Shown here: positions 40,311-60,890 of the stretch, piece after piece
Layout: every line of letters begins with the position of its first letter
Position numbering within the stretch: position 1 is the stretch's first letter
NCBI RefSeq assembly: GCF_038725785.1
Contig: NZ_CP109796.1
Span: 3,782,001 to 3,846,000, forward strand
Length of the DNA: 64,000 nt
Direction of reading: 5' to 3'
Source: Termitidicoccus mucosus
GTDB taxonomy: Bacteria > Verrucomicrobiota > Verrucomicrobiia > Opitutales > Opitutaceae
The notes under the pieces: generated by a model
Database searches by the model: none
Seen by the model: the letters and a program-made list of their open reading frames with translations, nothing else
What the model was told of the DNA's origin: nothing
Translations under genes and position numbers: made by a program

Positions 40311-40510
40311 AACAGAAGGAAACGAAGGGAACCAAGAAAACCATAATCATAAAAGTATTCTTCGTTCCCTTTGTTTCCTTCTGTTAAAAACAATGGTTCA
40401 ATTTTTTATTTCACAGCGAAGGCGCGAAGGGATTTTATAATCGGTATTCTTTGCGAAACTTTGCGCCGCTTTGCCCCTTTGCTGTTAATTTATTGGTTCG
40501 TTTTTATTTT
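40311..40510. repeat. Palindromic array 1, junction motif in reverse orientation
   Basis: Unit A (40311-40385) has 28-base arms of the AACAGAAGGAAACGAAGGGAAC type. Unit B (about 40413-40485) has CAGCGAAGGCGCGAAGG facing CTTTGC...GCTGTT. Each is followed by ATGGTTC or TTATTGGTTCG, the reverse complement of the GAACC junction. Confidence 0.8.
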
Positions 40511-40526
40511 AATATCATAACAGACA

Positions 40527-41261
40527 TTGCAAACAGAACCCATTCATAGCCCCACCGGGGCCGTCTTCGCGACCACCCAATGGAGCGTCGTTTACGCCGC
40601 CGCGCAATCGCGGCAGCCCGGCGCAAGCGACGCGCTCACACAACTCTGCCGCCATTACTGGACGCCCCTCTACGCCTTCGCGCGACGCCAGGGGCTCGAC
40701 CCGCACGACGCCCGCGACCTGGTGCAGGGCTTCTTCGAGTCGCTCCTCGCCAGCCGCACCTATGCAAACGCCACCCCCGCGCGCGGGAAATTCCGCTCCT
40801 TCCTCATCGGCGGCCTCAAACACTACCAAGGCGACATGCGCGACAGGGCCGAAGCCCTCAAGCGCGGCGGCGGCTCGACCATCATCCCCCTGAACGAAAA
40901 CGCCCTCGAAGACCGTTATGCCGCCGGCGCGGCTTCGCTCTCCCCCGAAAAAGCCTACGAACGCCGCTGGGCCATCGCCGTCATCGACCACGCGCTGGCC
41001 GGCCTGCGCGCCGAGTTCGACGCCGCGGACAACGCCGCCGCCTTCGCCGTCATGGTCCCGTTCCTCACCGGCGACCCGACCCAGTCCTACGACGACGCCT
41101 GCCGGACGCTCGGCGTCTCGCTCCCCGCCTTCAAGGCGCAGGTCCACCGCCTGCGCATAAAATTCCGCGCCCACCTGCGCCGCGAAATCGCCGCCACCGT
41201 CGATTCGCCCCTCGAAATCGACGAGGAGATGCGCCACCTGCGCGAAATCCTGGCCTCCTGA
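40527..41261 (+). CDS. ECF-like sigma-70 factor
   Basis: 244 residues. A TAA codon lies nine bases upstream in frame, so TTG at 40527 is the only plausible start. Sigma region 2 is TTQWSVVYAA, then HYWTPLYAFARRQGLDPHDARDLVQGFFESLLA; region 4 is YDDACRTLGVSLPAFKAQVHRLRIKFRAHLRREI. It matches the ECF-like sigma factors of planctomycetes and Verrucomicrobia that sit beside Ser/Thr kinases, as here. Probably redirects RNA polymerase to a small regulon, perhaps including the exported-protein genes downstream. No anti-sigma factor is visible; the kinases may take that role. Confidence 0.85.
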   Translation: MQTEPIHSPTGAVFATTQWSVVYAAAQSRQPGASDALTQLCRHYWTPLYAFARRQGLDPHDARDLVQGFFESLLASRTYANATPARGKFRSFLIGGLKHYQGDMRDRAEALKRGGGSTIIPLNENALEDRYAAGAASLSPEKAYERRWAIAVIDHALAGLRAEFDAADNAAAFAVMVPFLTGDPTQSYDDACRTLGVSLPAFKAQVHRLRIKFRAHLRREIAATVDSPLEIDEEMRHLREILAS

Positions 41262-41269
41262 GCGGAGGA

Positions 41270-41465
41270 AAACCAAACCAATAAATTAACCACAAAGAAC
41301 GCAAAGATTTGAAAACATGATCTTCCCTGAATTCTTTGCGTTCTCTGCGGTTATAAAAACGAACCATTAAAATGGCCGCAAAGACGCACAAGAAGCACAA
41401 AAAACAATCACTCCATCTTGTGCCTTTTGTGCCTCTTTGTGGCTATTAAAACCGAACCAATAAAC
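41270..41465. repeat. Palindromic array 2
   Basis: Unit 41288-41352 has CACAAAGAACGCAAAG facing CTTTGCGTTCTCTGCGG. Unit 41373-41445 has GGCCGCAAAGACGCACAAG facing CTTGTGCCTTTTGTGCC. The joints are AAACCAAACCAATAAAT, ATAAAAACGAACCATTAAAA and TTAAAACCGAACCAATAAA, the last abutting the next gene. Confidence 0.85.
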
Positions 41466-41475
41466 CGGCATTCCC

Positions 41476-44400
41476 CTGAACCCCGCGCCTGACAACCTTT
41501 GCCCGCGCTGCGGCACCCCCCTGCCGCCCGCCGCCACCGACGACGACGCGCCGCCGCTCTGCCCCGTGTGCCTGCTCGACGCCGCGCTCGACCTCGGCGA
41601 CGCCGGCGCGGACACCCGCGCGCCCTTCACCAGCCCCGCCGCCGGCAAGCCCGGCAACTTCGGGCATTTCGCGCTTGAGGAGGAAATCGGGCGCGGCGGC
41701 ATGGGCATCGTGTATCGAGCCCGCGAATACGCCTCGGGCCGCGTCGTCGCGCTCAAGATGATGCACCTCCTGCACCTCCAGACCCCCGAGATGATGAGCC
41801 GCTTCGAGTCGGAGGTCCGCGCCGTCGCCTCCCTCGACCACCCCGGCATCATGCCCGTTTACGAGGTCGGCCATTGCGACGGCATCCCGTATTTCAGCAT
41901 GAAGTTCGCCGAACGCGGTTCGCTCGCCGGCAAGGCCCGCGACCATGCCGGCGACCCGCGCGCCGTCGCCGCGCTCGTCGCCAAGCTCGCCCGCGCCGTG
42001 TTCCACGCGCACCGGCGCGGCGTCATCCACCGCGATCTCAAGCCCGGCAACATCCTCCTCGACGCGGACGGCGAGCCTTACGTCGCCGATTTCGGCATCG
42101 CAAAAATCATCGGCGAGCACGACCGCACCGCCACTGCCACGCGCGCCCTCGGCACGCCCGCCTATCTCGCGCCCGAGCTGGCGCGCGGCGGCCCCGTCGA
42201 AATCACCACCGCCGTGGACATCTACGGCCTCGGCGCCATCCTCTACGAATTGCTGACGGGCCGCCCGCCCGCCACCGGCTCCAGCCCGCTCGAAGTTTTC
42301 CGCCAGATCGCCCAAGGCGCCCCGCCCGCGCCGCGTGCGCTTGTCCCCGCGCTCAGCCGCGACCTCTCCGCCGTGTGCATGAAGTGCCTCGCCCCGTTCC
42401 CGGACAACCGCTACGCCAGCGCCGCCGAACTTGCCGACGACCTCGACAACTACCTCGCCGGGCGCCCCGTGCTCGCCCGCCCGCCCGGGATGGCCGGGCA
42501 AATCCGGCTTTTTTGCCGCCGCCAACCCGTCGTTGCCGGCCTCGCCGCGGGCATCGCCGTGCTCCTCGCGGCCATCGGCGCGGGCAGCACCATCGCCGCC
42601 GTCACCGTCGCCGCGCAACGCGACCGCGCCCTCCACGCCGAGCAATCCGCACAAGACCGACTCCACGATTCGCTCCTCATGCAGGCGCGCCTCGGACGCC
42701 AGACCGGACAGGCCGGCCAGCGCTTCGACGGCCTCGATGTCCTCCGCCAGGCCGCCGCCATCCGCACCACCGCCGACTTGCGCGACGAAGCCGCCGCGCT
42801 CCTCACCCTCACCGACCTGCGCGTCGGGCGCACCACGCAAGTCCGCGAGTCCCCGAACTTCCCCGTCTCATTCGACCCCGCGCTCGAACGTTACCTCGTC
42901 TGCGTGCAAAAGGACAACGCCCTCTCCCTCCGCCGCCTCTCCGACCACGCCGAAATCGCCGCCTTCCCCGGCACCGCGAAAAACGTTCTCTCGCTCTCGC
43001 CCTTTTCCGCCGACGGACGCTACGTCGCCTCGCGCCACTACGACGGCCCCATCCGCGTCTGGGACACCCGCGAGCTCCGCATGGCCTTTGAGCTCCGGCA
43101 GACACCACCCAAAAAGCGCCCCTACCAAAGCGTCCGCTTCTGGTTCGGCTGCGCGTTCTCGCGCGATGGCAAACTCGCCGCCATCGAGCTGGCCGAAGGC
43201 GGCTACACCGTCCACGAGACCGCCACCGGAAAAGAACTCGCGCGCTTCCCCGACAAATTCAGCGCCTACGCCCTCGCCCTCGATGGCGACGGACGCCGCC
43301 TCGCCTACGCCGACCGCGGCGCCGGCATGGTCGAAATCCGCGACACCCTCACCGGCGAAAAACGCCACACCCTCGAACACCCCTCCGAAGTCTTCTGCCT
43401 CGAATGGAGCCCCGACGGCGCGCTCCTCGCCGTCGGCTGCACCGACGCGCTCATCTACATCTGGAACACCGCCACCGGCGAGCGCCACCGTGTGCTCGAC
43501 GAGCACCGCAACCGCGTCACCCACCTCGCCTTTTCGCCCGACGGACGCGTCCTCGCCTCCACCTCGCAGGAGAAAAACATCATCCTCTGGGACCCCGAGT
43601 CCGGCAAAAAACTCGTCTCCTACCCCGACCTCGGCCACGAACCCGTGCTCCGTTTTTCGCGCGACGGCAAACGCCTCGTCTCGACCAATTTTCAAGTCAA
43701 CGCCACCGTATTCGAAGTCGCCACGGACGACGGCATCAGCCTCGCCTTCTCCCCGCCAGGCCGCAGCCACAACGCCGTCGTCACCGCCAGCGTCGATTTC
43801 TCGCCCGACGAACGCTGGCTCGTCTCCTCCACGCGCCGCGCCATCAGCCTCTGGGACCTCCGCCGCCACCGCCTCGCCGCCAGTCTCCAACCCGGCGGCG
43901 ACACCGAGACCTCCGCGCTCTTCACGCCCGACGGCGCCGCCCTCCTTGTCGCCAACCGCGCCACCGGCCTCGCGCGCCATCCCTTCGACCCCGCCAACGC
44001 CGACGCGCCTTTGGGCCGGCCCGCGCTGTTGATGAAAGAGCCGGACTTCACCCTCAGCGATTTCGGCGCCAGCAAACACCACGCCCTTCTCGCCAACCGC
44101 GCCACCGGCCACGCCCTCCTCTGGCCGCTCGATGCCGCCGGCGGCGCGCTCCGCCGCTTCGCCGTGCAACCGGAGGCGCTCTCCGCCGCGCTCTCGCCCG
44201 ATGGGAAAATCCTCGCCACCACCACCTCCGGCCAAAGCACCCGCACGCCCTCCTTCAAAGTTCACCTCTGGGACGCCGCCACCGGCGAAAAACTCCGCGA
44301 ACTCGAAGGCGGCCACGGCGGACTCGTCCGTTTCACGCCCGACGGCGCGCGCCTCCTCGCCTCCGGCCACGGCCCCTTCGCCGCGTGGGATCTCGCCACG

Positions 44401-44703
44401 CTGACCCTCGTCCCCGGCGCCCCGCGCCTCACCGAAACGCTCGGCTTCTCCCTCTCCCCCGATGGGCGCTATCTCTGCCTGTCCGGCGGCGACAAAATCG
44501 CCCTGTATCAAGGAAAAAACTACGAGGACTTGGTCATCCAGCTCCAACCCCTCGGCGTCCGCAACGCCGGCAGCCGCGTGACCTTCAGCCGCACAGGAAA
44601 TCTCCTCGCCGTGCAGGAAAGCGACGGCGTCGTGCGCATCTGGGACCTGCCCAAACTCCGCGCCAAGCTCGCCGAACTCTCCCTCGACTGGCCCGACAAG
44701 TAG
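41476..44703 (+). CDS. Zinc-ribbon Ser/Thr protein kinase with WD40 propeller, paralogue 1
   Basis: 1075 residues if CTG at 41476 is the start; a TAA lies 15 bases upstream and the first ATG is far inside, while the paralogue at 45015 starts with TTG at the matching codon. N-terminal zinc ribbon (CPRCGTP...CPVC), kinase domain with GRGGMGIVYRA (about 71-81), H185-R-D187 and DFG (D205), activation loop GTPAYLAPEL. One membrane helix (about 350-380), then a WD40 propeller to the end (many HLWD/RIWD repeats). A transmembrane sensor kinase of the Hanks type whose propeller lies outside the cytoplasm if the topology is as predicted. It probably phosphorylates the adjacent sigma factor or partners; this is inference. 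Confidence 0.88.
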   Translation: MNPAPDNLCPRCGTPLPPAATDDDAPPLCPVCLLDAALDLGDAGADTRAPFTSPAAGKPGNFGHFALEEEIGRGGMGIVYRAREYASGRVVALKMMHLLHLQTPEMMSRFESEVRAVASLDHPGIMPVYEVGHCDGIPYFSMKFAERGSLAGKARDHAGDPRAVAALVAKLARAVFHAHRRGVIHRDLKPGNILLDADGEPYVADFGIAKIIGEHDRTATATRALGTPAYLAPELARGGPVEITTAVDIYGLGAILYELLTGRPPATGSSPLEVFRQIAQGAPPAPRALVPALSRDLSAVCMKCLAPFPDNRYASAAELADDLDNYLAGRPVLARPPGMAGQIRLFCRRQPVVAGLAAGIAVLLAAIGAGSTIAAVTVAAQRDRALHAEQSAQDRLHDSLLMQARLGRQTGQAGQRFDGLDVLRQAAAIRTTADLRDEAAALLTLTDLRVGRTTQVRESPNFPVSFDPALERYLVCVQKDNALSLRRLSDHAEIAAFPGTAKNVLSLSPFSADGRYVASRHYDGPIRVWDTRELRMAFELRQTPPKKRPYQSVRFWFGCAFSRDGKLAAIELAEGGYTVHETATGKELARFPDKFSAYALALDGDGRRLAYADRGAGMVEIRDTLTGEKRHTLEHPSEVFCLEWSPDGALLAVGCTDALIYIWNTATGERHRVLDEHRNRVTHLAFSPDGRVLASTSQEKNIILWDPESGKKLVSYPDLGHEPVLRFSRDGKRLVSTNFQVNATVFEVATDDGISLAFSPPGRSHNAVVTASVDFSPDERWLVSSTRRAISLWDLRRHRLAASLQPGGDTETSALFTPDGAALLVANRATGLARHPFDPANADAPLGRPALLMKEPDFTLSDFGASKHHALLANRATGHALLWPLDAAGGALRRFAVQPEALSAALSPDGKILATTTSGQSTRTPSFKVHLWDAATGEKLRELEGGHGGLVRFTPDGARLLASGHGPFAAWDLATLTLVPGAPRLTETLGFSLSPDGRYLCLSGGDKIALYQGKNYEDLVIQLQPLGVRNAGSRVTFSRTGNLLAVQESDGVVRIWDLPKLRAKLAELSLDWPDK

Positions 44704-44734
44704 CCCCCCGGACGTCCGCGGCATTTTCAGGAGC

Positions 44735-44840
44735 GCGGACATTCCTGCCCGCGATGTCGCGGGCTGGTTCCGAGCGAAGCGAGAAGCTTGACAAGCCCGC
44801 GCTCCTGTTCACGGGCACGGACGCCCGTGCCACGCGACCC
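44735..44840. repeat. Hairpin-forming repeat between the kinase genes
   Basis: AGGAGCGCGG (44735 region) faces CCGCGCTCCT (near 44797-44806), followed by GGGCACGGACGCCCGTGCC, a member of the composite family seen at 17275 and 57008. The 311-base gap between the two kinases otherwise holds no gene. Confidence 0.6.
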
Positions 44841-45014
44841 GGTGTTTTCGTCCATTGCGCAGTGGTGCCGTTGCACGCCCGAAAAATGTCCGGGAAAACC
44901 TCCCTTCCGTCTCTTCAAAAAAGATTTTTCCACTGAAAACGGCGGAAACCCAAAATACCCCGCAACCCGCCGCGCGAAAATCCCAAAGACAAGGGTGAAC
45001 CAATCCGCGCACCC

Positions 45015-48320
<3,306 letters not shown>

Positions 48321-48440
48321 TCCGAAATTTTCCCGCAACTTCTCCCAGCCCTTTCCCAAAGGATGGTTGGACGGGTCTCATGCCCGGCCACCCGACCATC
48401 AATTCCGACCTTCTCCTCCCTTCAACCCTCCACTCGTATC

Positions 48441-48677
48441 ATGAAAAACAAAAAACATCACATCGCCATCATCACCGCCGCGCTCGCGGCCCTCTTCGCC
48501 TCGGGGTGCACCACCCCGGCGGGCCAGAAAGTCCAGGAAGGCAACCAGCAGGCCAACCAGGTCATGGACGGCGTTGACTCCGCCAACAGCACCGCCAACC
48601 GCGCCGCCGACACCGCCAACACCACCGCCGACACCGTCAACAAGGTCAACGAAACCCTCAACCGCTTCTTCAAGTAA
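48441..48677 (+). CDS. Small lipoprotein with Asn/Thr/Ala repeat tail
   Basis: 78 residues from ATG 48441. Lipobox FASGC puts the mature Cys near residue 23; the rest is a low-complexity helix (QQANQVMDGVDSANSTANRAADTANTTADTVNKVNETLNRF) with heptad-like spacing, resembling a murein-lipoprotein coiled coil. No enzymatic residues. Likely an envelope tether or spacer. Confidence 0.7.
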   Translation: MKNKKHHIAIITAALAALFASGCTTPAGQKVQEGNQQANQVMDGVDSANSTANRAADTANTTADTVNKVNETLNRFFK

Positions 48678-48893
48678 CCAATAAAATAGCCGCAAAGCCG
48701 CGCAGGAAGCACAAGGCGAAACACTCACGCCCGTGCCTTTCGCTCCTCTCTCTGATTATTAAAACCGAACCCTTTATCTCACACAAAGGCGCCAAGACAC
48801 AAAGGAGTGAATCATACCGGCACACCGCCCTGCTCTTTGTGCCTTCGTGCCTTTGTGTGAGATAAAAAACCGAACCATTAAAATTAATCGCCC
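48678..48893. repeat. Palindromic array 3
   Basis: Two units: one with GCCGCAAAGCCGCGCAGG facing a degenerate GTGCCTTTCGCTCC, and one with TCTCACACAAAGGCGCCAAG facing GCCTTTGTGTGAGA. Joints: TTAAAACCGAACCCTTTA and AAAACCGAACCATTAAAA. Confidence 0.8.
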
Positions 48894-48915
48894 CCCTCCC
48901 ACCCGCACACACAAC

Positions 48916-49200: not shown

Positions 49201-49248
49201 CCCGCGCCGCATCCACCCATCCGTCCCATCAGCCCAAACCCTCCCATC

Positions 49249-50181: not shown

Positions 50182-50310
50182 TAATCCGCTGACACTTCCC
50201 CACGGCGCGGGTTGCGGTGACAAACGTGAACACTACACTCACCAGCAAACCGCGCACCCAATCCGCGCCGTGGGCAAACCAGCATAAAAACCGTCCGCGG
50301 ATTATCATGA

Positions 50311-50868
50311 TTAAAACTCAATCCTGTTAATCCTGAAAAATCCTGCAATCCTGTCCAAAAAACCGAGCCAATAAAGATCCTCGGGGCAAGCCCCGAGGTA
50401 TTGAAGACACCAGCAACGGATTCCGTTGCCCTGATAAACGAAGCAAGCTTCGGGGTATTGCACCCAAAGAGAATAAATTAGCCAAAATGGACAGAATGAA
50501 AAACCATTCCGTTCATTTCATTAAATTCTGTTCATTCTGTCTAAAAATAACGAACCATTATTTTTAACAGAAGGAAACGAAGGACACCAAGAAGACAATA
50601 ATCATAAAATGTATTCTTCGCTCCCTTCGTTTCCTTCTGTTTAATAAAAACCGAACCAATAAATTAACCACAAAGAACTCAAAGATTTGAAAACATGATC
50701 TTCCCTGGGTTCTTTGCGTTCTCTTCGGTTAATAAAAACGAACCGATAAAATGGCCGCTCCACGAACGAAGCGGGTGGCCGGACAAAACGCGCAGGATGC
50801 GCAAAGAAAAACACCTCAATCTTGTGCCTTTTGCGCCTCTTTGTGGCTATTAAAAAACGAACCACTAA
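50311..50868. repeat. Palindromic array 4, at least five different units
   Basis: In order: AATCCTGTTAATCCTG, CCTCGGGGCAAGCCCCGAGG, a CATTCTGTC/GACAGAATG unit, AACAGAAGGAAACGAAGG (50567-50640), ACCACAAAGAACTCAAAG (50665-50730), and GGCCGCTCC...TGTGGC. The joints are AACCGAGCCAATAAA, AACGAACCATTA, AAACCGAACCAATAAA, AAACGAACCGATAAA and AAACGAACCACTAAA. The 694-base gap holds no gene. Confidence 0.85.
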
Positions 50869-50875
50869 AAACATC

Positions 50876-52048: not shown

Positions 52049-52113
52049 CCGCCTGTCCAATGACTTTCAAGTCCATCCGGACTGAACCCAAGACACAAAC
52101 CAAACATAAAATC

Positions 52114-53142
52114 ATGCAAAATAGCATAAAACTCACGGGCGCGCTTTTCGCCTCCGTTCTCCTCGCCGGCGCGGCCCGGGCTGAAATCGCCCTTGTCCCC
52201 GGCCTCAATATCACCGGCTACGCCGCCGGTTCTGTCGGCTACGACCGGCTGGATTTCGACGCCGGCGATGACGCGGACGAGGCGCGCATGGACCTGGACG
52301 CCATCCGTCTGGACGCGCTCTTTAATTATAACGACACTGTCAGCGCCAAACTCAGCCTCTATTCACTCGCTGGCGACGGGCTCGTGGTGCCCGAGGCATT
52401 CGTTTCCTATAAAACCGGCGACCTCACCGTCACCGCCGGGCGTTTCCTGACCTGGGCCGGCTACGAATCCTTTGACATCCCGGCGGCCGGCGCGATCACC
52501 TCCGGCGACGTCTTTGGCCTCCTTCCCAAGCACCACAACGGCGTGAAGGCGACCTGGGCCCTCGATAATTTCACCGTGGGCGCTGCCCTGCTGGACTCGG
52601 TATGGGGCTACACCTACTACAAGGGCGACGGCGACATCAACCACGGCAGCCTCGGCGCCGAATTATACGCGGCCTACGACGACAAGACCTTCAGCTTCGC
52701 CGCCACCATCGCCTACGAACACGACCATGTGCTGATGGACGCCGACGCGTTGAATATCAATGTCTGGGGTCAGTATTACATCGACAGCAGCAAAACCACC
52801 CTCGGCGCCGAGTTTACCTACCAGCGAAGCGAAAACAAACTGGGCCACGGCGACGCCTTCAGCGCCCTGCTGTTCGCCAGGCAGGCGCTCGGTGACAAAT
52901 GGACGCTCGCCGGCCGCGTCTCCGCCGGCAGGGCCGATGCCGACATCGGCTCCGTCGGGCTTGACGATCCCGGTTTCGTCAAGCTGTCCGTCATCCCCGC
53001 CGTGGCGCTCAGCGAAAACCTCGAGGTCCGCGCCGAGGTGAGCTACGGCGCGTATGATAATTATTATGACCTCGACGGCCTCGCGCCCCGCGAACTGAAA
53101 AACGAGGTCTTCGCTGGCGTGCAGGTCATCTTCAAATTCTGA
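52114..53142 (+). CDS. Outer-membrane beta-barrel protein (porin-like)
   Basis: 342 residues from ATG 52114. Signal peptide (ASVLLAGAARA), then alternating strands with aromatic girdles (TFSFAATIAYEHDHV, NVWGQYYID, TTLGAEFTYQRSE) and a C-terminal Phe (VQVIFKF) as needed for BAM insertion. Resembles small-porin/BBP2 type proteins. Probably a diffusion channel. A clear terminator follows. Confidence 0.85.
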   Translation: MQNSIKLTGALFASVLLAGAARAEIALVPGLNITGYAAGSVGYDRLDFDAGDDADEARMDLDAIRLDALFNYNDTVSAKLSLYSLAGDGLVVPEAFVSYKTGDLTVTAGRFLTWAGYESFDIPAAGAITSGDVFGLLPKHHNGVKATWALDNFTVGAALLDSVWGYTYYKGDGDINHGSLGAELYAAYDDKTFSFAATIAYEHDHVLMDADALNINVWGQYYIDSSKTTLGAEFTYQRSENKLGHGDAFSALLFARQALGDKWTLAGRVSAGRADADIGSVGLDDPGFVKLSVIPAVALSENLEVRAEVSYGAYDNYYDLDGLAPRELKNEVFAGVQVIFKF

Positions 53143-53164
53143 CGCACCCCGCGCAAATAAACAC

Positions 53165-53190
53165 ACCGGCGGCGGAAAACCGCCGCCGGT
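53165..53190 (+). terminator. Rho-independent terminator after the porin-like gene
   Basis: ACCGGCGGCGG (53165-53175) pairs perfectly with CCGCCGCCGGT (53180-53190) around AAAA, followed by TTATAAT. The best terminator in the region. Confidence 0.8.
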
Positions 53191-53239
53191 TTATAATCAA
53201 CTAAAAAATCCATTCCTCAAAATATTTTCCCATCCCTCC

Positions 53240-53786
53240 ATGACTGTTCCCGTCCTTAAATCGCGCATTGCCATTCCCGCCGCGCTCTGTGCCGCTCTGC
53301 TTCTCGCAGGTTGCGGAAAATCGCAAAAAACCGGAACCGCCTACGAGTCCGACGCAAAATCCAACCTCGCCCGCGCCGAGAAATCCATGAAAGGCGAGCA
53401 CGACATGTCGGACTGGCAGTTGAAAAAAAATGGCCGAAATCGGCAAGTCCGTCCCCGGCAAAAGCGTCGTAGAGGAACATTCGGGCCAAGGCTACACCTA
53501 CCGTGTCCGCCTCTTCGAGGACGGGAAATATAAAACGACGGTCACCCGCCTCCTTCTTTCCGAGGACTATGCCGACCGCTACGAAAGCGAGCGCGAAAAT
53601 ATGAGCGTCGGAGTCATCGAAGAGGCGGACAAGGCCCGGCGCTACATCCGCAGCACCTACGACGAGTATAAATACCGGGACAAAACCTGGCAGGAGGTTT
53701 ACGACGACCAGAAATCCTGGGTCGAGAAAAACGCCGCCGCCGCCGCCGAATACAACATGAAATCCGGCTACCGCCTTGTCGAATGA
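53240..53786 (+). pseudogene. Lipoprotein gene split by a frameshift at an A8 tract
   Basis: The first frame (from ATG 53240) has a signal peptide with lipobox LAGC and reads to 53423-53430, a run of eight A's, after which it becomes a nonsense Arg-rich tail ending at 53533. One base later, a second frame (ATG 53430) reads 118 sensible residues (EEHSGQGYTYRVRLFEDGKYK...) to 53786. Removing one A would fuse them into a single lipoprotein. It could be a true pseudogene, a phase-variable gene, transcriptional slippage, or a sequencing error in a homopolymer. Confidence 0.75.
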
Positions 53787-53888
53787 CAAAGAGGCAGGGC
53801 GGCTTCGCCGAAAGCCGCCGCCCCGCAACTCCATCCATCCCACCACTCCCATCCCTCACATTTCTCCCATTCTTCCCATCTTCCCCCC

Positions 53889-54626
53889 ATGAATACAAAA
53901 CACACCACCTGCCTCCTCCTCACCACAATCGCGGCCATCGCCGCGTTGTCCCTCGCCGGCTGCGGCAAATCCGGCTCGTCCGGCCCGTCCGCGTCCGGCT
54001 CTTCCTCCGCCCGCGAAGGCGCCCTCTCCATAAAATATAAAAAGGACAATACCGTTTACATCTTCACCAAAAGCGCCGACGGTCAGAAAAAGCGCATGGA
54101 TAGCATATCCAGTCACGACGGCCACCAGCACCAGGAAACGCAGATATGGGACCGCAACGGCGGCCCCAACAAAAAAGGCATCGTCCACAAATACGAGGAT
54201 GGCGCGTGGAAGGAACTCCTCCGCACCGACGCCAGCGGCAATCTCGACATGGCCGCCCTCCGCGTCGAGCAGAACCTCAACAACGCCTTCTCCGACCCCG
54301 TCGCCGACCTGACCAAATACTATGTCCACGAAAAGGTAGGCTTCACCAAGCAGCCCTCCGTCACCATCGCCGGCAAAACCTGCGACGTCTATGCCGGCGT
54401 GCGCCCGGAGAACACCGGAGGCCTGCCGCGCTACGGCGACCTGAACTTCGGGAAGTCCTACGAGGAAATCGCCGTCTGGAACGGTATCACCATGCGCCTG
54501 AAATACACCCGGACGCTCTCCAACGGCGCCAAAGAGGAAACCGTCTGCCTTGAGGCGCTGGCCGTCACCCAAAAAGTCCCCGACTCCGCCTTCACCAAGA
54601 CCCTCGAAACCACCTGGATCAAATAA
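53889..54626 (+). CDS. Exported lipoprotein of unknown function
   Basis: 245 residues. Lipobox SLAGC. Beta-rich body with IKYKKDNTVYIFTKSADGQKKR and a C-terminal MRLKYTRTLSNGAKEETVCLEALAV. No family recognised. It starts like its frameshifted neighbour (Lys/Thr signal and LAGCGKSxxxG), so the two may be distant relatives. A palindromic array follows. Confidence 0.75.
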   Translation: MNTKHTTCLLLTTIAAIAALSLAGCGKSGSSGPSASGSSSAREGALSIKYKKDNTVYIFTKSADGQKKRMDSISSHDGHQHQETQIWDRNGGPNKKGIVHKYEDGAWKELLRTDASGNLDMAALRVEQNLNNAFSDPVADLTKYYVHEKVGFTKQPSVTIAGKTCDVYAGVRPENTGGLPRYGDLNFGKSYEEIAVWNGITMRLKYTRTLSNGAKEETVCLEALAVTQKVPDSAFTKTLETTWIK

Positions 54627-54643
54627 GAACCAACAAACAAACT

Positions 54644-54753
54644 CACCACAAAGACACAAAGATCACAAGAAAACCCTAATCATGGTTTTATACACAAACC
54701 TCCTTTTTCGTCCTTTGAGTTCTTTGTGTCTTTGTGTCTTTGTGGTTAATAAA
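54644..54753. repeat. Palindromic array 5
   Basis: ACCACAAAGACACAAAGATCACAAG faces CTTTGTGTCTTTGTGGTT. A GAACCAACAAA joint precedes the unit and a TTAATAAAAATC joint follows it. Confidence 0.8.
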
Positions 54754-54766
54754 AATCATCACCATC

Positions 54767-55456
54767 ATGACCGCAAAATCCACCGCCAAAATCCTCATGC
54801 GGTTCCTACCACTGCTTTTAATCGCATCGGTCCTCCCGGCCCGTGCCGCCGTCGTCTCGCCCTTCATCCGCGCGGGCGTTGACTACAGCAAACCCAACGC
54901 CATCGAGGAAGTCCGGGGTGCCAATTCCGACAACTGGAAGGACAAGCTCGACGGCTGGAAGCCCGGCTACTTCGCCGAGATCGGCCTCACCCTTTTCGAC
55001 AGTCACACCTTCGGCCTCGAAGCCGGATATATGAAAATCAGCGATTCCGTGGACAATTCGCTCATCGGCTCCGGCACCGGCCAGACGCCGGTTGCCATCA
55101 CCGAAAAAACCCAAATCCCGATTCTCCTCAATTACCGCTACACCCTCGGCCTCGGCCCCGTCGGCCTCTACGTCGGCGCCTCCGTCGGCATGATGAGCGA
55201 CAAGGCCGGCTGGAAGGCCGATGTCAACCACGCGATCGAAAACTACAAGGATTCCAACTGGATCGGCCTCTACGGCGCGACCGCCGGCGTCGTTATAAAA
55301 CTCGGCAAGACATGGGCGCTGGATGTCGGCGCCCGCGCTCTGGCCTCCAAGGAAAAAACCTTCTCCGACAACGTCGAGGACGAGTCCGTCACCATCGGCA
55401 AAAACAAACTCTACTGGCGCCCCAACGTCCGCGCCGCCCTGAGCTGCCGCTGGTGA
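54767..55456 (+). CDS. Outer-membrane beta-barrel protein (OmpA-N/OmpW-like)
   Basis: 229 residues from ATG 54767. Signal peptide ends near LPARA. An eight-strand-like pattern (FIRAGVDYSKPNA, YFAEIGLTLFDSHTFGLEAGYM, IPILLNYRYTLGLGPVGLYVGASVGMM, NWIGLYGATAGVVIKLG) and a C-terminal aromatic end (RAALSCRW). Small barrel of the outer membrane; substrate unknown. Confidence 0.82.
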   Translation: MTAKSTAKILMRFLPLLLIASVLPARAAVVSPFIRAGVDYSKPNAIEEVRGANSDNWKDKLDGWKPGYFAEIGLTLFDSHTFGLEAGYMKISDSVDNSLIGSGTGQTPVAITEKTQIPILLNYRYTLGLGPVGLYVGASVGMMSDKAGWKADVNHAIENYKDSNWIGLYGATAGVVIKLGKTWALDVGARALASKEKTFSDNVEDESVTIGKNKLYWRPNVRAALSCRW

Positions 55457-55461
55457 GAACC

Positions 55462-55680
55462 GAACCGATATTTTGAACAGAAGAAAACGAAGGACGCCAG
55501 GAAAACCATAATTATAAAATGTATTCTTCGCTCCCTTTGTTTCCTTCTGTTCAATAAAAACCGAACCTTTATTTTAACAGGATTTCAAGATCTGGCAGGA
55601 TTATAGTATTATTTGCACATGCACCAGGTAGGGCGAACCCTCCGGGTGAGCCGCGGCTCGGCGGGGACGCCTCGCCCTGC
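55462..55680. repeat. Palindromic array 6 with a GTAGGGCG-family tail
   Basis: AACAGAAGAAAACGAAGGACGCC faces its complement (ends 55553), then an ACAGGAT unit, then a degenerate copy of the 26077 repeat at 55625-55680. Joints: GAACCGAACCGATATTT and AAAAACCGAACCTTTA. The rest of the 412-base gap (55681-55868) shows no gene. Confidence 0.75.
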
Positions 55681-55868
55681 CGTTATGTATAAATATCGAT
55701 AGAAAATACTATAAAAACAAGCCTGACAACCAAAACCACCTTCCCCGCGAATGGACACCGCTGGCACGGATATTTTTTCCAAAACCACGAGGAGCCACGC
55801 AAAACAACGGCCGAGAGGTTTGATCCGCGCCCGGCCGTGTTCATTCGCGGTCAATAAATTTCCCCGCC

Positions 55869-56987
55869 ATGCCCGACGAAAACCAACCCGACACCACCGC
55901 CGCGCCCATTGACGCGCCCGCCGCTCCTGAAAACCCGCCGACGCCGCAGCCGGCGGACGCGCCCCCGCCGCCGGAAGGCCGCTGGGTGTGGGTCGCCGAC
56001 ACCGCGCAACCCTCACAATCCGCGCAACTCTCGCAGCCCGCACCCGCCCCGGCTCCCGTGCCCGCGGCGGCGCCCGCACCCGTTGCGGACACCGCGCCCG
56101 CCGCCGCTCCCGGCGCGTCGCCGGCATCCGCCGCGCCGGAGAAGCGTTTCAGCAAACTCTCGCTCGTCACGCTGCTGGCTGGCCTGCTTGTGCTCATCTG
56201 GCCGTTCACGATCATCTGCGGCCATATCGCGCGCGGGCGCATCCGTCGCTCCAAGGGCGCTCTCACCGGCGGCGGCGTGGCGCTGCTCGGGCTGTTGCTC
56301 GGCTACCTCGGCATGGTGGCCTGCGTCGCCTCGACGGTCTCCGGCGGCCTCTGGATCTGGCGCACCAGCTCCGGCATCCGCGACGACATCGCCGCCGGGC
56401 GCGACCCGGCGGAGGCGGTGGTCAGCCGCGTCGCCCCGGCGGTCTCGAAGCTCGGCGAGCCGCTCGTCAAGGGCATCATGAAGAGCGAGGCCCTCCTCCC
56501 CGCCGGCGTGCGCGAGCAAATCAACACCGCGCTCGACGAATCCGCCGACCAGCGCCTCTCCCTCGCCGGCCAGTGGCTGCTCCAGCAGGCCGCCGCCAAC
56601 GGCGGGTGCCTGCCCGGCACGCTCGACGGCTTTGGCAAAAACGCCCTCGGCTCCCTCGGCACGCAACTGCCGGGCGGCGCCGCCCCCGCCGCTCCCGCGC
56701 AACCCGGCGACGCCGCCGGCGCCGCGCTGCCCGGCGGCATGCCGCTGCCGGCCTCCGGCATGGCGTCCGCGCTCGGCGGCCTCGACCTCTCGATGTTCTC
56801 CTCGATTCTCACGCGCGGCCTCGCCGTCGTCCCCGGCCTCACGACCGCCCTGCCGCCCGACACCGTCGCCCTGCATTACACAAAACCGCTCGCCGACGGC
56901 ACCGTGCCGGTCTTCCTGCTCGGCGGCGAAACCGCCCGCCTCCAGCCCGGCGACCCGCGCCTCGCGGGCCTCGCGCTCGAAAAGTGA
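55869..56987 (+). CDS. DUF4190-like membrane protein with Pro/Ala-rich N-terminus
   Basis: 372 residues. N-terminal 90 residues are Pro/Ala-rich and lack a signal. Two membrane helices (KLSLVTLLAGLLVLIWPFTIICGHIARGRIRRSKGAL and GGGVALLGLLLGYLGMVACVASTV) match DUF4190, followed by a long Ala/Gly-rich extracytoplasmic domain of unknown fold with GGxxxP repeats. Function unknown. Confidence 0.7.
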   Translation: MPDENQPDTTAAPIDAPAAPENPPTPQPADAPPPPEGRWVWVADTAQPSQSAQLSQPAPAPAPVPAAAPAPVADTAPAAAPGASPASAAPEKRFSKLSLVTLLAGLLVLIWPFTIICGHIARGRIRRSKGALTGGGVALLGLLLGYLGMVACVASTVSGGLWIWRTSSGIRDDIAAGRDPAEAVVSRVAPAVSKLGEPLVKGIMKSEALLPAGVREQINTALDESADQRLSLAGQWLLQQAAANGGCLPGTLDGFGKNALGSLGTQLPGGAAPAAPAQPGDAAGAALPGGMPLPASGMASALGGLDLSMFSSILTRGLAVVPGLTTALPPDTVALHYTKPLADGTVPVFLLGGETARLQPGDPRLAGLALEK

Positions 56988-57007
56988 CAGCAATCTCCGT
57001 GGTTTGA

Positions 57008-57125
57008 GTGGCACGGGCGTCACGCCCGTGGGTTTGGCGTTTTTCCGGCAAAGCATGGGCGGGACGCCCATGCCACACGAACCGGCGGCTTCGCCGTCCA
57101 CGGGCGAGGACGCCCGTGCCACTCA
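57008..57125. repeat. Composite GGGCG palindrome cluster, intergenic copy
   Basis: Three hairpins (GTGGCACGGGCGT/ACGCCCGTG, GCATGGGCG/CGCCCATGC, GGGCGAGGACGCCCGTGCCAC) in the same order as the copy inside the glycosyltransferase gene at 17275-17381. Also explains most of the 284-base gap to the next gene. Confidence 0.85.
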
Positions 57126-57271
57126 AGCCACGCTTGCCCGGACGGCCCGATTGCGACCAAGCAAAGGCCATTCCGAAAGTTTTTTCAAAAAAATCCGGAT
57201 AAATCCGCAACTCTTGGCGGTGTTTCCCCAATGGATGGGTGGACGAAACTATTCCGCTCCCATTCCCATCC

Positions 57272-59122
57272 ATGAAAACCACCAAACTATCACTCACCCG
57301 CTGCCTCGCGACCTTCGCGGCGGCGCTTCTCATCGCGCTGGGCGCGCCCGCCGCCGCCACCGCGCAGCCGGAGTCGGCTGCATCCGCCGTCCCTGCGTCC
57401 GTCCTCGTCACGCTCGACCCGCAAGGCGGCGCGTTCCCCGCCGCCGCCGCCAACGCCAACGCCGCCACGCCCGCCACCCTCGCCGTCACGCCCGGCGAAG
57501 CCTACGGCGCGCTCCCCGTGCCCGCGCGCGACGGCCACGTCTTCCACGGCTGGTGGACGCTCCCCGACGGCACCGGCGCGCTCATCACGCCCGGCACCCT
57601 CGTGCCGGTGCCGGCAAACACCGCCGCCGCCGCGCCCGCGTCCGCCAGCGACACCGCCCTCACGCTTTACGCCAAATGGTCGCCCGCCGCCGCGTCCGTG
57701 GCCGCCGCCGCTCCCGCCGCTCCCGCGCCTGCCGCCGCCGCGCTTCCCGACGAAATCATAGACGTCTCCCTGCTTGTTCCCGGCACGGGCACAATCCGCG
57801 GCAACGGCTGGCAGTTCCAGTCCACCGGCACTGGCCACGCCAACATCAACACGGTGTATCTCTTTAATTATGCCTACAATTTCATCCTGACCGGCACCGG
57901 CGCGGCCGGCGTGGATGTGGAAGCGTATCGGTGGTCCGGCACGCCAGCCTGCACCATCACCCTCGACAACCTCTCGCTCACCGGCATCCGGGGCCGGTCC
58001 CTTGCCTCGATGAGCTTAAAGACGGACGGCGGAAACCTCACCATTTACGCGAAAAACAACACGGTCATCACCGGACGTTCCCCGGCAGGCGGCATTTGGG
58101 TTAGCGCCACCGGCGCCACCACCGGCACGCTCACCCTCGACCTCGCCCCCGGCGCCGTGCTCGACACCACCAGCGCCGACGGCGGCGGCCTCACCTGCAG
58201 CGGCACCGCCGCCGGCGCCGCCCTCGTCGTGCAAGGCTCCGGCACGCTCAACGCCCTCACCGCCAGCGGCACCGACGTTTTTGGCACGTCCATTGGGGAT
58301 GCCCTCTTCGGCTACCGCGTGCCCGCCGCGGGCATCCTCGTGGAAGGCCCCGTGCTCCTCACCGGCAGCGTCGCCGTCAACGCCATCGGCGGCAACTACT
58401 CCGGCACCTACACCACCCCATCCAACTACGCCCCCGGCGACGGCGTGCGCGCCGCCGCGCTCACCCTCGACGGCGCGGCCCGCCTCACCGCCGCCGCCGG
58501 CAGCTACACCGGCACGCTCACCGCCTCCGGCTCCGGGCGCACCGGCGGCAACGGCATCGTCCTCTTCGCCGCCTCCGCCACCGCGCCCGCCGCGCTCACC
58601 GTCAACTCCACCGCCGCAAACGCCCTCGTCGCCACCGGCGGCGCCACCGCCGCCTCCGGTGCCGTCCCCGCGTGGACCGGCAACGGCGTCGCCGCCATTG
58701 ACATAAATTATCCGACCGACCTCGTCATCAGCGGCACCGGCCAAATCAAAACCGCCGGCCACAACGGCGTTTATTCCGACGGCGACCTCGCCATCAACGG
58801 CGGCAAAATCACCGCCGAGGGCCGCGGCTCCGGCTACGCCCTCCACGCCGCCGGTGGCGTCGCCACCGGCACCGTCACCCTCGCCAACACCGCCGCCCTC
58901 ATCGTCACCGCCACCAACCGCGACACCCCCGCCAACATCGTCAAAGGCACGCTCGTTGACCCCGGCCACAAACTAAACGCCACCGGCACGACGACCGGCA
59001 CCGGTGGCACCGGAAATAATAACAACACCGGCGGCGGCGGTGGTGGCGCGCCCTCGCTCCCCTTGCTGGCGCTCCTCGCCCTCCTCGCCGCCCTCCGCGC
59101 GAGGAAAACCACCCGCGAATAA
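57272..59122 (+). CDS. Exported protein with InlB-like repeat, carbohydrate-binding-like region and membrane tail
   Basis: 616 residues from ATG 57272. Signal peptide ends near ATAQP. Residues about 45-140 form an InlB B-repeat-like unit (VLVTLDPQGG, GHVFHGWWTLPDGTGALITPGT, ALTLYAKWSP). Residues about 160-580 are beta-helix or DUF4353-like (ITLDNLSLTGI..., GGKITAEGRG) with Ser/Thr/Gly repeats. The C-terminus is Gly-rich, then GGGGGGAPS, a hydrophobic helix and an Arg/Lys end, nearly identical in form to the tail of the giant protein at 924-7919. Probably a cell-surface adhesin or glycan binder. Confidence 0.8.
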   Translation: MKTTKLSLTRCLATFAAALLIALGAPAAATAQPESAASAVPASVLVTLDPQGGAFPAAAANANAATPATLAVTPGEAYGALPVPARDGHVFHGWWTLPDGTGALITPGTLVPVPANTAAAAPASASDTALTLYAKWSPAAASVAAAAPAAPAPAAAALPDEIIDVSLLVPGTGTIRGNGWQFQSTGTGHANINTVYLFNYAYNFILTGTGAAGVDVEAYRWSGTPACTITLDNLSLTGIRGRSLASMSLKTDGGNLTIYAKNNTVITGRSPAGGIWVSATGATTGTLTLDLAPGAVLDTTSADGGGLTCSGTAAGAALVVQGSGTLNALTASGTDVFGTSIGDALFGYRVPAAGILVEGPVLLTGSVAVNAIGGNYSGTYTTPSNYAPGDGVRAAALTLDGAARLTAAAGSYTGTLTASGSGRTGGNGIVLFAASATAPAALTVNSTAANALVATGGATAASGAVPAWTGNGVAAIDINYPTDLVISGTGQIKTAGHNGVYSDGDLAINGGKITAEGRGSGYALHAAGGVATGTVTLANTAALIVTATNRDTPANIVKGTLVDPGHKLNATGTTTGTGGTGNNNNTGGGGGGAPSLPLLALLALLAALRARKTTRE

Positions 59123-59131
59123 CAAAACCGG

Positions 59132-59549
59132 GCCGATAAATTAACCACGGAGACACGGAGGACACGGAGTCATGAAAGAGAATTTTATTAAAAAACTCCC
59201 TCCGAACTCCATGTCCTCCGTGCCTCCGTGGTTAAATAAAACCGAACCAATAAATTGAACCACAAAGAACGCAGAAAACGCAAAGACTGATAAATATGAT
59301 TTTTCCATGAGTTCTTTGCGTTCTTTGCGGTTAATTAAAAACGAACCATTATTTCTAACAGAAGGAAACGAAGGGAACCAGGAAAACCATAATCATAAAA
59401 TGTATTCTTCGTTCACTTCGTTTCCTTCTGTTCAATAAAGATTGAACCAAAAAATTTAACCGCAAAGAACGCAATGGGCGCAAAAAATGATCATACTCCT
59501 CCCTGCGTTCTTTGCGTTCTCTGCGGTTAATAAAAAAACACCCGAACTT
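59132..59549. repeat. Palindromic array 7
   Basis: Four units: ACCACGGAGACACGGAGGACACGG facing its complement; ACCACAAAGAACGCAG facing CTTTGCGTTCTTTGCGG; AACAGAAGGAAACGAAGGG; and AACCGCAAAGAACGCAATGG. The joints are AAACCGAACCAATAAATTG, AAAAACGAACCATTATTT, AAAGATTGAACCAAAAAATTT and AAAACACCCGAACTTAAAT. The 443-base gap has no gene. Confidence 0.85.
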
Positions 59550-59565
59550 AAATTTTTCCTCCATC

Positions 59566-60426
59566 ATGAACACACATAACAAACAACACACCAAGCCGCT
59601 GGCCCTCGCCGCCGCGCTTCTCATCACGCTGGGCGCGCTCGCCGCGCCCGCGTCCGCCGCCTCGGATTTCGAGGGGCGCATCGACATGAAAATCAGCAAC
59701 CCGCAATCCAAGGAAAACAACAACGCCGTCATCAGCACCTATATAAAAATGCCGAAACTGCGCATCGAGATGAATGCCGCGCTCGACGTGAGCGGCACCG
59801 CCGCCAAGCCCGGCAAAAAGCAGGCGCAGGAGTTTGCCATGACGATCATCACCGACACCGAGACCGAGGAAAACCTCATCCTCATGCCGCAGCAGAAAAT
59901 GTATATGGTGTCGAAAGGCAACCGCGGCAACGCCTCCGCGTCCGGCCAGGCCGAGGACGCCTACAAGCCCACCGGACGCACCGACACCATCCTCGGCCAT
60001 CGCGTCGAGGAATACGCCAGCACCGGCTCCGGCGAATACACGGAAATGTGGCTCGCCAGCGGCCTCGGCGCCTTCCGCATGGCCGGCACCGGCCCGAACG
60101 CCAGGCAGCAGGAAAAGAAAGGCTGGGAAAAATTCCTGGAGGAGAAGGGCCTGTTCCCGCTGAAAGTCACCACCTATAAAAAGGAGGGCGACGACAAGAT
60201 GATGTATCAAATGGAGGTGATCAAAATCGAAAAAGGCAGCCAGCCCGACTCGCTCTTCGTCCCTCCCGCCGATTACAAAAGACTCGACATGGGCGGCATG
60301 TTCGGCGGCATGTCGGACGCCATGAAGGACGCCGCCGCCGAAAGCGCCAAGGAAGGCGCGAAGGATGCCGCCAAGCAAAAAGCCAAAAGCAGCGTCTGGG
60401 ACCGGCTCAAGAATCTCGGGAAATAA
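59566..60426 (+). CDS. Exported DUF4412-like protein
   Basis: 286 residues from ATG 59566. Signal peptide ends near ASAAS. FEGRIDMKISNPQ, then PKLRIEMNAALD, ILMPQQKMYMVSKG and FPLKVTTYKKEGDDKMMYQMEVIKIEKG match DUF4412, a lipid-binding-like exported family. The last 50 residues are a Lys/Ala-rich helix. Function unknown. Confidence 0.75.
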   Translation: MNTHNKQHTKPLALAAALLITLGALAAPASAASDFEGRIDMKISNPQSKENNNAVISTYIKMPKLRIEMNAALDVSGTAAKPGKKQAQEFAMTIITDTETEENLILMPQQKMYMVSKGNRGNASASGQAEDAYKPTGRTDTILGHRVEEYASTGSGEYTEMWLASGLGAFRMAGTGPNARQQEKKGWEKFLEEKGLFPLKVTTYKKEGDDKMMYQMEVIKIEKGSQPDSLFVPPADYKRLDMGGMFGGMSDAMKDAAAESAKEGAKDAAKQKAKSSVWDRLKNLGK

Positions 60427-60459
60427 CCCCGCCCCGCCCGGACAAACGATGCGACTATA

Positions 60460-60890
60460 TTTAAACATGGAGATACAGAGACCGGGGAAAGTTCTTTAAT
60501 AAATTCTCTTTCATAACTCCGTGCCCTCCGTGTCTCCGTGGTTGATTTATTGGTTCGTTTTTATTGAACAGAAGGAAACGAAGGGAACGAAGAATACCTT
60601 TTTATGATTATTATCTTCTTTGTTCCCTTTGTTTCCTTCTGTTAAAAATAATGGTTTGTTTTTGCCGTCCACAAATTACACGGATTCGCACGGATTATTT
60701 TTATAATTTATTTTTCAATCTGTGTTAATCTGTAAAATCCGTGGACAGTTTATCGGTTCGGTTGTTATTAACAGCAAAGGCGCAAAGTCCGCGAAGGGGC
60801 GCGAAGGTTTTTGAAGGGTTTGTTTTCTTCGCGAAACTTTTCCGCGCTTTGCTCCTTTGCTGTTAATTTAGTGACTCGTTTTATTTCACC
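60460..60890. repeat. Palindromic array 8, junctions in reverse orientation
   Basis: Units: ACGGAG type (60460-60545), AACAGAAGG type (about 60566-60648), a CCACAAATTACACGGATTC type (60670-60748) and an AACAGCAAAGGCGCAAAG type (60769-60868). The joints read TTATTGGTTCG, AATGGTTTG, TTATCGGTTCGG and TTAGTGACTCG, the reverse complement of the usual motif. Confidence 0.8.

What the first reader, a model, noticed from the sequence alone, without database searches (positions are those of the whole stretch)
40311..60890. Mosaic palindrome arrays joined by a common GAACC junction motif
Eight intergenic gaps hold 15-20 palindromic units of at least eight unrelated arm sequences (for example AACAGAAGGAAACGAAGG, ACCACAAAGAACGCAAAG, ACCACGGAGACACGG, AATCCTGTTAATCCTG). 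Between units lies nearly the same short spacer, AAAACCGAACC(A/G)(A/T)TAAA. The spacer flips orientation only in the first and last arrays (40311-40510 and 60460-60890). Single palindromes of these sorts are known in many environmental genomes. I know of no description of different ones being collected side by side through one shared joint, which looks like an insertion site or assembly rule.
Basis: partly seen in the sequence, partly recalled or inferred. Interest (0 to 1): 0.78.

Follow-up and report, generated by a model that had tools for sequence, protein, structure and literature searches.

The report
Directional palindrome cassettes sharing one joint
Gaps between genes in one genus of Opitutaceae bacteria are filled with rows of different DNA hairpins, nearly all facing the same way and separated by one shared short sequence, which suggests an unknown process that inserts or swaps hairpins like beads on a string.

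Summary
Eight gaps (40.24-60.89 kb) hold about 22 palindromic units. The window has 21 matrix-scored copies of one directional joint, AAAAMCGAACCAWTAAA; 16 strict matches were found against 0.14 expected. The own genome has 61 (reversed control 2), two genus-mates 57 and 61, and 112 other relatives 0-9 each. Units also occur without the joint, so it is not simply part of the palindrome.

New findings. Of 155 short inter-joint segments, 141 are hairpins. Joints in one array point one way (82 of 83 multi-joint arrays). Unit loops are oriented to the joint (106 same, 5 inverted, 9 unclear). Joint edges follow the neighbouring units, the core MCGAACCAW follows neither. The strand opposite the joint folds better in most units of each of 14 unit groups. 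At six orthologous gaps direction is kept while units differ in five.

Best reading: non-autonomous single-strand-hairpin cassettes inserted or exchanged at the joint. It works like REP/BIME or attC hairpins, but defining features of both were tested and not met. No enzyme is tied to it. New variant of a known kind.

The parts
40240..40510 (-). array 1 (joint direction minus); one remnant arm and two units between a TonB-dependent-type outer-membrane receptor gene and a gene with a weak sigma-70 region 2 match (below Pfam cut-off)
40265..40287 (-). remnant single arm, AATCGCGG family
   Evidence: by eye
40308..40388 (.). palindromic unit, AACAGAAGGAAACGAAGG family; loop inverted relative to its joint (by eye)
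40389..40405 (-). joint
40406..40488 (-). palindromic unit, AACAGCAAAG family (not scored as a hairpin by the script; palindrome by eye)
40489..40505 (-). joint
41262..41465 (+). array 2: joint-unit-joint-unit-joint, first joint 7 bp after the upstream stop codon
41269..41285 (+). joint
41286..41354 (+). palindromic unit, AACCACAAAG family
41355..41371 (+). joint
41372..41447 (+). palindromic unit, GGCCGCAAAG family
41448..41464 (+). joint (exact match)
48678..48883 (+). array 3; different units in the orthologous gap of genome G002
48685..48760 (+). palindromic unit, GCCGCAAAG family (degraded)
   Evidence: by eye
48761..48777 (+). joint
48778..48865 (+). palindromic unit, CTCACACAAAGG family
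48866..48882 (+). joint (exact match)
50310..50870 (+). array 4, five units and one IS200-type miniature element
50318..50358 (+). palindromic unit, AATCCTG family
   Evidence: by eye
50359..50375 (+). joint
50376..50470 (+). miniature element whose end hairpins resemble those of the IS200-like element in L381
   Evidence: by eye
50472..50545 (+). palindromic unit, (A)GACAGAATG family
50546..50562 (+). joint
50563..50646 (+). palindromic unit, AACAGAAGGAAACGAAGG family
50647..50663 (+). joint (exact match)
50664..50733 (+). palindromic unit, AACCACAAAG family
50734..50750 (+). joint
50751..50852 (+). palindromic unit, GGCCGC family with an insertion in one arm (not scored as a hairpin by the script)
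50853..50869 (+). joint, 6 bp before the next gene
54627..54755 (+). array 5: one unit with a degenerate joint below the matrix threshold
54645..54746 (+). palindromic unit, TCACCACAAAG family
55456..55620 (+). array 6, starting at the stop codon of the upstream gene
55456..55472 (+). joint (weak, 9.4)
55473..55556 (+). palindromic unit, AACAGAAGGAAACGAAGG family
55557..55573 (+). joint
55574..55616 (+). truncated palindromic unit, AACAGGATT family
   Evidence: by eye
59123..59545 (+). array 7: four units, first joint 1 bp after a stop codon
59124..59140 (+). joint
59141..59237 (+). palindromic unit, AACCACGGAG family
59238..59254 (+). joint (exact match)
59255..59336 (+). palindromic unit, AACCACAAAG family
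59337..59353 (+). joint
59354..59437 (+). palindromic unit, AACAGAAGGAAACGAAGG family
59456..59530 (+). palindromic unit, AACCGCAAAG family; preceded by a degenerate joint near 59439-59455
60460..60885 (-). array 8 (joint direction minus), four units
60468..60545 (-). palindromic unit, CACGGAG family
   Evidence: by eye
60546..60562 (-). joint
60563..60646 (-). palindromic unit, AACAGAAGGAAACGAAGG family
60647..60663 (-). joint
60664..60748 (-). palindromic unit, TGTCCACGGATT family
60749..60765 (-). joint
60766..60866 (-). palindromic unit, AACAGCAAAG family
60867..60883 (-). joint

Best explanation
The arrays are a genus-specific, directional cassette form of intergenic palindromic repeats. 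A cassette is one palindromic unit (usually 70-110 bp, stems with a 9-nt period) in fixed orientation, carrying the 3' part of one joint (AWTAAA..) at its left end and the A-run of the next joint at its right end. The common core CGAACC is where cassettes meet. Units without genes of their own fold as hairpins on single-stranded DNA, on the strand opposite the joint, and are cut out, copied or inserted at that core by an enzyme acting in trans. Repeated events at existing joints give head-to-tail rows of n units and about n+1 joints. Shown: the joint, its core, its direction, unit orientation to the joint, strand asymmetry, genus restriction within the genomes searched, turnover between sister species, and near-identical units in different contexts. 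Inferred: that a single-strand enzyme (IS200/IS605- or RAYT-like HUH, or an IntI-like tyrosine recombinase) does this. No such enzyme was identified.
For: Joint enrichment: 61 against 2 reversed control in the own genome; 57 and 61 in the two genus-mates, 0-9 in 112 other relatives. Layout: 141 of 155 inter-joint segments up to 160 bp are hairpins. Direction: 0 of 41 multi-joint clusters of G000 are mixed, 0 of 14 in G001, 1 of 22 in G002; with stricter settings 1 of 83 in all three. Orientation: loop to joint 106 same, 5 inverted, 9 unclear of 120. Boundaries: in 108 joints with known neighbours, positions up to +3 follow the left unit, +14 on follow the right unit, +4 to +12 follow neither, +13 weakly the right; unit pairs with at least 0.88 identity but different neighbours (85 pairs left, 65 right, not independent) lose most of their extra match inside the joint. 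Strand: joint-forward A-C mismatches 232 against G-U 108; the reverse strand folds better in 123 of 147 units, the forward in 23, one tie. In unit groups with at least two members, the reverse strand wins in most members in 14 of 14 and A-C exceeds G-U in 13 of 14. The lean is kept where genes point the other way (24 to 14) and is absent from other palindromes of a random sample (A-C 21, G-U 26). Turnover: G002 has six joints where G000 has none (L257 vs L343).
Against: No recombinase or transposase is linked. No joint lies within the sequence held around 7 Y1-transposase loci of G000 or in 13 stretches covering 18 of its 19 integrase matches. In G001 and G002, of 13 Y1 loci one has a strong joint, because an IS200 element has inserted into a unit, and one a weak joint. 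First joints of arrays carry the A-run as well, although no unit precedes them, so joint and cassette ends do not separate cleanly. No clean empty site was found, so a single insertion event was never seen. Units also exist alone or nested in loops without a joint. The strand lean in arrays opposed to genes is weak on its own (14 to 24, p=0.14; 6 of its 17 units come from one locus), and one unit group has slightly more G-U (20 to 19). In G000, near-identical units share the right core less than random pairs do (6.55 against 7.70, 11 pairs). The excess at core positions 7-13 is small, and on the right side a small excess reappears at positions 15-17.
Confidence: 0.45

Rival explanations
1. Ordinary REP/BIME biology: the units are REPs moved by a resident RAYT, and the joint is merely an inter-REP spacer that was amplified.
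For: Small intergenic palindromes in arrays; one-strand hairpin preference; different REP families coexist in O. terrae (PMC3733652, passages); hybrid BIMEs exist (PMC2817692, passages). G000 has 7 Y1-transposase matches, and one of these genes is flanked by direct copies of another palindrome (L034).
Against: GTAG or CGTC near a unit foot in only 3 of 151 units. Units run head to tail in one direction, not alternately. No joint lies near the 7 G000 Y1 matches. One joint serves at least 14 unit groups as I sorted them.
Confidence: 0.2
2. Target-site duplication: palindromic miniature elements (the arms being terminal repeats) insert by a DDE transposase into a preferred target CGAACCAWT, duplicating about 10 bp.
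For: About n+1 joints for n units; core length typical of some insertion-sequence families (recalled); a separate miniature element with inverted ends sits in some gaps. Joint position 4 agrees between neighbours somewhat above chance in G000 (31 of 49, P=0.03).
Against: Over the whole core the two copies flanking a unit are no more alike than random ones in G000 (7.56 against 7.55, n=59) or G001 (7.73 against 7.74, n=30); G002 shows an excess (8.30 against 7.98, n=53), where blocks of units are duplicated between loci. Strand asymmetry and fixed orientation are not expected for a symmetric element.
Confidence: 0.12
3. RNA function: the arrays are intercistronic mRNA hairpins (stability, processing or attenuation) and the joint is a linker or a stop/restart signal, kept by selection.
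For: Joint direction follows genes (54 against 7 in co-directional contexts, p=4e-10), and the first joint lies within -16 to +12 bp of the upstream stop codon in 22 of 54 arrays against 5.7 expected. Terminator-like sites in 41.2-61.0 kb are 51 against 29.6 plus or minus 6.1 (not examined one by one).
Against: The better-folding strand is the antisense one. Unit content or order differs in 5 of 6 orthologous arrays. No Rfam match over gathering score in 36.5-63.2 kb. 7 arrays oppose both neighbouring genes.
Confidence: 0.13
4. An integron-type system: units are attC-like hairpins moved by an integron integrase.
For: The bottom-strand hairpin preference resembles attC sites (PMC2727003, abstract). 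G000 has at least two integron integrases over the NCBIfam cut-off (367 and 365 bits), and a truncated copy lies beside a joint array (L248).
Against: That copy has the array on its 3' side, not the attI side expected for an integron (recalled). No joint in the 20-kb stretch holding each intact gene. None of 6 integrase matches found in G001 and G002 is an integron integrase over cut-off; both genomes are only about 70% complete. The joint does not fit GTTRRRY exactly (motif recalled).
Confidence: 0.07

Closest known systems
REP / BIME / REPIN elements with RAYT (TnpAREP)
   Same: Short intergenic palindromes, arrays at many loci, one strand preferred, species-specific turnover, hybrid arrays of different families known (PMC2817692, PMC3733652, PMC3116915, PMC8266576; passages of each).
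   Different: No GTAG/CGTC tag, longer stems with a 9-nt period, one direction instead of alternating REP and inverted REP, a single shared joint across at least 14 unit groups, no RAYT gene found flanked by units or joint.
Integron attC cassette arrays
   Same: Directional row of exchangeable units with a conserved core between them; hairpin on the bottom strand (PMC2727003, abstract).
   Different: No genes seen in the short cassettes, arrays at dozens of loci, no joint near the intact integrases, core motif not met.
IS200/IS605-type miniature elements
   Same: Single-strand hairpin logic; an IS200-like element has inserted into a unit loop here.
   Different: Their ends are different hairpins, without the joint.
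Solitary 9-nt-period palindromes of other Opitutaceae (for example AACCACRGAGACACRGAG)
   Same: Same arm sequences; 28 of 107 relatives outside the genus carry this family.
   Different: Five of them with 34, 26, 22, 21 and 18 arms have 0, 0, 0, 1 and 0 joints; no joint was seen by eye beside the unit in the 21 of 25 fetched loci where the unit was in view.

Membership tests
REP/BIME (RAYT-mobilised) | GTAG (or CGTC) tetranucleotide at the hairpin foot | tested here: not met
   3 of 151 units
REP/BIME (RAYT-mobilised) | REPs in alternating orientations within the array | tested here: not met
   0 of 41 multi-joint G000 clusters mixed, 1 of 83 in three genomes; loop orientation 106 same, 5 inverted, 9 unclear
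REP/BIME (RAYT-mobilised) | cognate Y1 transposase gene flanked by the repeat | tested here: not met
   7 G000 loci without joint; of 13 loci in G001 and G002 one has a strong joint, where the transposon sits in a unit loop, and one a weak joint. G001 and G002 are incomplete.
REP/BIME (RAYT-mobilised) | short extragenic palindrome in many copies | tested here: met
Integron | integrase gene next to the array with attI | tested here: not met
   intact genes without joints; the truncated one has the array on its 3' side
Integron | attC core GTTRRRY / RYYYAAC (motif recalled) | tested here: not met
   joint core reads GTTCGKT on the bottom strand, by eye
Integron | cassettes carry genes | tested here: not met
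   155 of 172 inter-joint segments are 160 bp or less; 7 of the rest exceed 1 kb and were not examined as cassettes
Integron | bottom-strand hairpin used for recombination | tested here: inconclusive
   the bottom strand folds better; recombination itself not testable
DDE element with target-site duplication | identical direct repeats flanking each insertion | tested here: inconclusive
   core of G000 and G001 at random level, G002 above it; age may hide it
CRISPR array | unique spacers between repeats, and cas genes | tested here: not met
   inter-joint segments are recurrent palindromes; cas genes not searched

The most novel reading that the evidence does not exclude
A gene-free cassette system: an unidentified single-strand recombinase of this genus captures hairpins of many unrelated families into directional arrays through one joint, so that intergenic hairpins are shuffled like integron cassettes.
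Probability: 0.25. Interest if true: 0.85.

Novelty: new variant of a known kind. Interest (0 to 1): 0.62.

Why it matters
How small palindromic repeats spread and are assembled is an old open question. Here a shared, directional joint with a definable exchange core, in three genomes with sister-species turnover, gives a sharp test: cassette gain and loss must end at the joint, and a protein must recognise joint plus hairpin on one named strand. If true, it would add a joint-guided assembly rule to the REP/BIME world, and perhaps a gene-free relative of cassette capture.

Tried and rejected
Rfam scan of 36.5-63.2 kb at gathering score: no match. Replication direction as the cause of joint orientation: GC skew of the sampled stretches appears to follow gene strand, so replichores could not be told apart. 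A replicon-wide unit census was not done; only arms of one family were counted (106 against 4 in the reversed control). Promoter- and terminator-like sites exceed shuffles (8 against 2.8; 51 against 29.6) but were not examined one by one. The integron idea was tested and mostly rejected; not every open frame of L442 and L443 was scanned. A clean empty site was sought and not found. Paper searches for unit and joint strings found nothing; other paper searches: 9, 41, 58, 59, 73, 74, 105. The statement that no such shared joint was found in print rests on these searches only.
Full report
Setting. The window lies in contig C1 of an unnamed 7.92-Mb genome, G000. The two genus-mates held are G001 and G002 (72 and 68% complete). 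A further Opitutaceae MAG, Gx485_bin97, has such arrays too (L089). Orthologous blocks of G002 are mostly 80-94% identical to G000.

The observation. Eight gaps hold about 22 units and 21 joints. The joint occurs 16 times in the window against 0.14 expected, and 61 times in the genome against 2 for the reversed pattern. In 115 genomes searched, G000, G001 and G002 have 61, 57 and 61. The other 112 have 0 to 9; the genome with 9 has 6 in its control. Among the genomes searched the joint is therefore a genus feature.

The joint is not part of the palindromes. The family AACCACRGAGACACRGAG.. occurs in 31 of 110 genomes, 28 of them outside the genus. Five of these with 34, 26, 22, 21 and 18 arms (G006, G032, G059, G026, G003) have 0, 0, 0, 1 and 0 joints. 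Of 25 loci fetched, 21 show the unit in the stretch printed, and by eye none shows the joint beside it. In G000 one unit family has 106 arm matches, control 4. Of 20 loci chosen by eye because they lack a strict joint, 10 have a joint by the matrix (score 8 or more), 9 have none at score 5 or more, and 1 is borderline. In three of these 20, another unit is nested in the loop (L365, L369, L375, by eye). In 480 kb of G000 taken at round coordinates, none of 56 intergenic palindromes lies by a joint; most belong, by eye, to other families, but two are unit families without a joint.

Anatomy. Of 172 inter-joint segments in the stretches held (41 of G000, 12 of G001, 28 of G002), 155 are at most 160 bp, and 141 of these are hairpins. 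Across 108 joints with known families on both sides, letters up to position +3 of the 17-mer depend on the left unit, letters from +14 on the right unit, +4 to +12 (MCGAACCAW) on neither, and +13 weakly on the right. Pairs of near-identical units with different neighbours (unit identity 0.88 or more: 85 pairs left, 65 right, not independent) keep their excess of matching letters only up to the inside of the joint, apart from a small excess at +15 to +17 on the right side. So unit lineages mostly end in the joint, and the exchange interval is about CGAACC. An example is a unit with 87 of 88 letters alike in L236 and L243 and different neighbours on both sides.

Direction. Of clusters with at least two joints, 0 of 41 in G000, 0 of 14 in G001 and 1 of 22 in G002 mix directions; at stricter settings 1 of 83 in the three genomes, there in G001. 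Loops are asymmetric, so unit orientation can be read: 106 of 120 stand the same way to the joint, 5 are inverted, 9 unclear. The window unit at 40308-40388 is a further inverted one and was not in that count. Joint and unit therefore travel as one oriented cassette, or are kept so.

Strand. Imperfect pairs in 141 stems are unequal: read along the joint, A-C 232 and G-U 108, which means G-U on the other strand. The other strand folds better in 123 of 147 units, the joint strand in 23, one tie. In the 14 unit groups with at least two members this majority holds in all 14 (one by 8 to 7), and A-C exceeds G-U in 13; the groups are my own sorting by arm motif. Where the joint opposes the flanking genes the lean is the same (A-C 24, G-U 14, 16 hairpins, 6 of 17 units from one locus), not significant alone; in mixed contexts it is 8 to 2; in other palindromes of the random sample it is absent (A-C 21, G-U 26). 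This points to hairpins kept on one single DNA strand, or to an antisense RNA; it speaks against the sense mRNA.

Position. Multi-joint arrays between two co-directional genes follow the genes in 54 cases and oppose them in 7 (p=4e-10). In 22 of these 54 the first joint begins within -16 to +12 bp of the stop codon, against 5.7 plus or minus 2.0 if arrays slid freely in the gap; the last joint lies near the start codon in only 2 of 54, though a unit may follow the last joint. Genes were called by a simple codon-composition script. I do not have an explanation for the stop-codon anchor.

Turnover. Six orthologous gaps with arrays in both G000 and G002 were compared by eye: window arrays 1, 2 and 3, L232/L258, L234/L306 and L240/L307. 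Joint direction is kept in 6 of 6; unit content or order differs in 5 of 6, two of these sharing a unit family at one end; L240/L307 keeps its units as far as seen. Opposite array 7, G002 has a lone joint of the same direction. Gaps with a joint or unit in one genome only: arrays 5 and 6 (not in G001), array 8 (not in G002), L218 (not in L309), L241 (not in L400 of G001), and L257 of G002, which has six joints and five units where G000 (L343) has a different palindrome. In none of these could a clean insertion boundary be read. G002 loci share blocks of about three units at 84-89% identity, and a unit marked by an insertion in its loop recurs in several contexts (L260, L263).

Mechanism. Fixed orientation, an exchange core, about n+1 joints and one-strand hairpins fit insertion or exchange of single-stranded hairpin cassettes at the joint. 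Neighbouring cores are no more alike than chance in G000 and G001, though somewhat alike in G002, which argues against recent plain target-site duplication. Y1 transposase genes and integrases show no convincing link. The exceptions are an IS200-like element inside a unit loop, and a truncated integron integrase beside one array on its 3' side, 93% identical over 367 aa to an intact copy elsewhere in the genome. The enzyme is unknown.

Known relatives. REPs carry a GTAG-type tag and form arrays with inverted REPs served by RAYTs (PMC8266576, PMC2817692, PMC3733652, passages); here tag, alternation and a flanking RAYT were tested and not met. Hybrid arrays of two REP types are known, so mixing as such is not new. 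The shared directional joint across many families was not found in print in the searches named under Tried and rejected.

Noticed in passing
L248:10429-11574 (minus); L440, L441: At least two intact integron integrases in G000 and a truncated copy beside a joint array (TIGR02249 183.7 bits, below the 265-bit cut-off).
   Followed up: partly
L381 (G002:C174), around 1349-1960: IS200-like transposase element (one internal stop in its Y1 match) inserted into the loop of a palindromic unit just after a joint.
   Followed up: partly
G001 and G002 gaps such as L314 and L306:7355-7605: Miniature element with inverted ends like AACTGATGTTACGCRG..CYGCGTAACATCAGTT carrying variable palindromes, in one case inside a unit loop.
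   Followed up: no
L034, near 1275 and 2187: RAYT-like gene flanked by direct copies of a different palindrome (CGCTTGCGCAAGGAGGGGCGGCG..), a possible true REP of this genome.
   Followed up: no
L342-L345 and others: Many other palindrome families fill G000 gaps without joints, for example TCTTTCCTCTTTATTCTTTCTC and GTAGGGCGAGGCGTCCCGCCGAGCCG.
   Followed up: no
arms of the palindromic units in G000, G001 and G002: Pooled arms of the many families repeat with a period of about 9 nt; why different arms share it is unexplained.
   Followed up: partly
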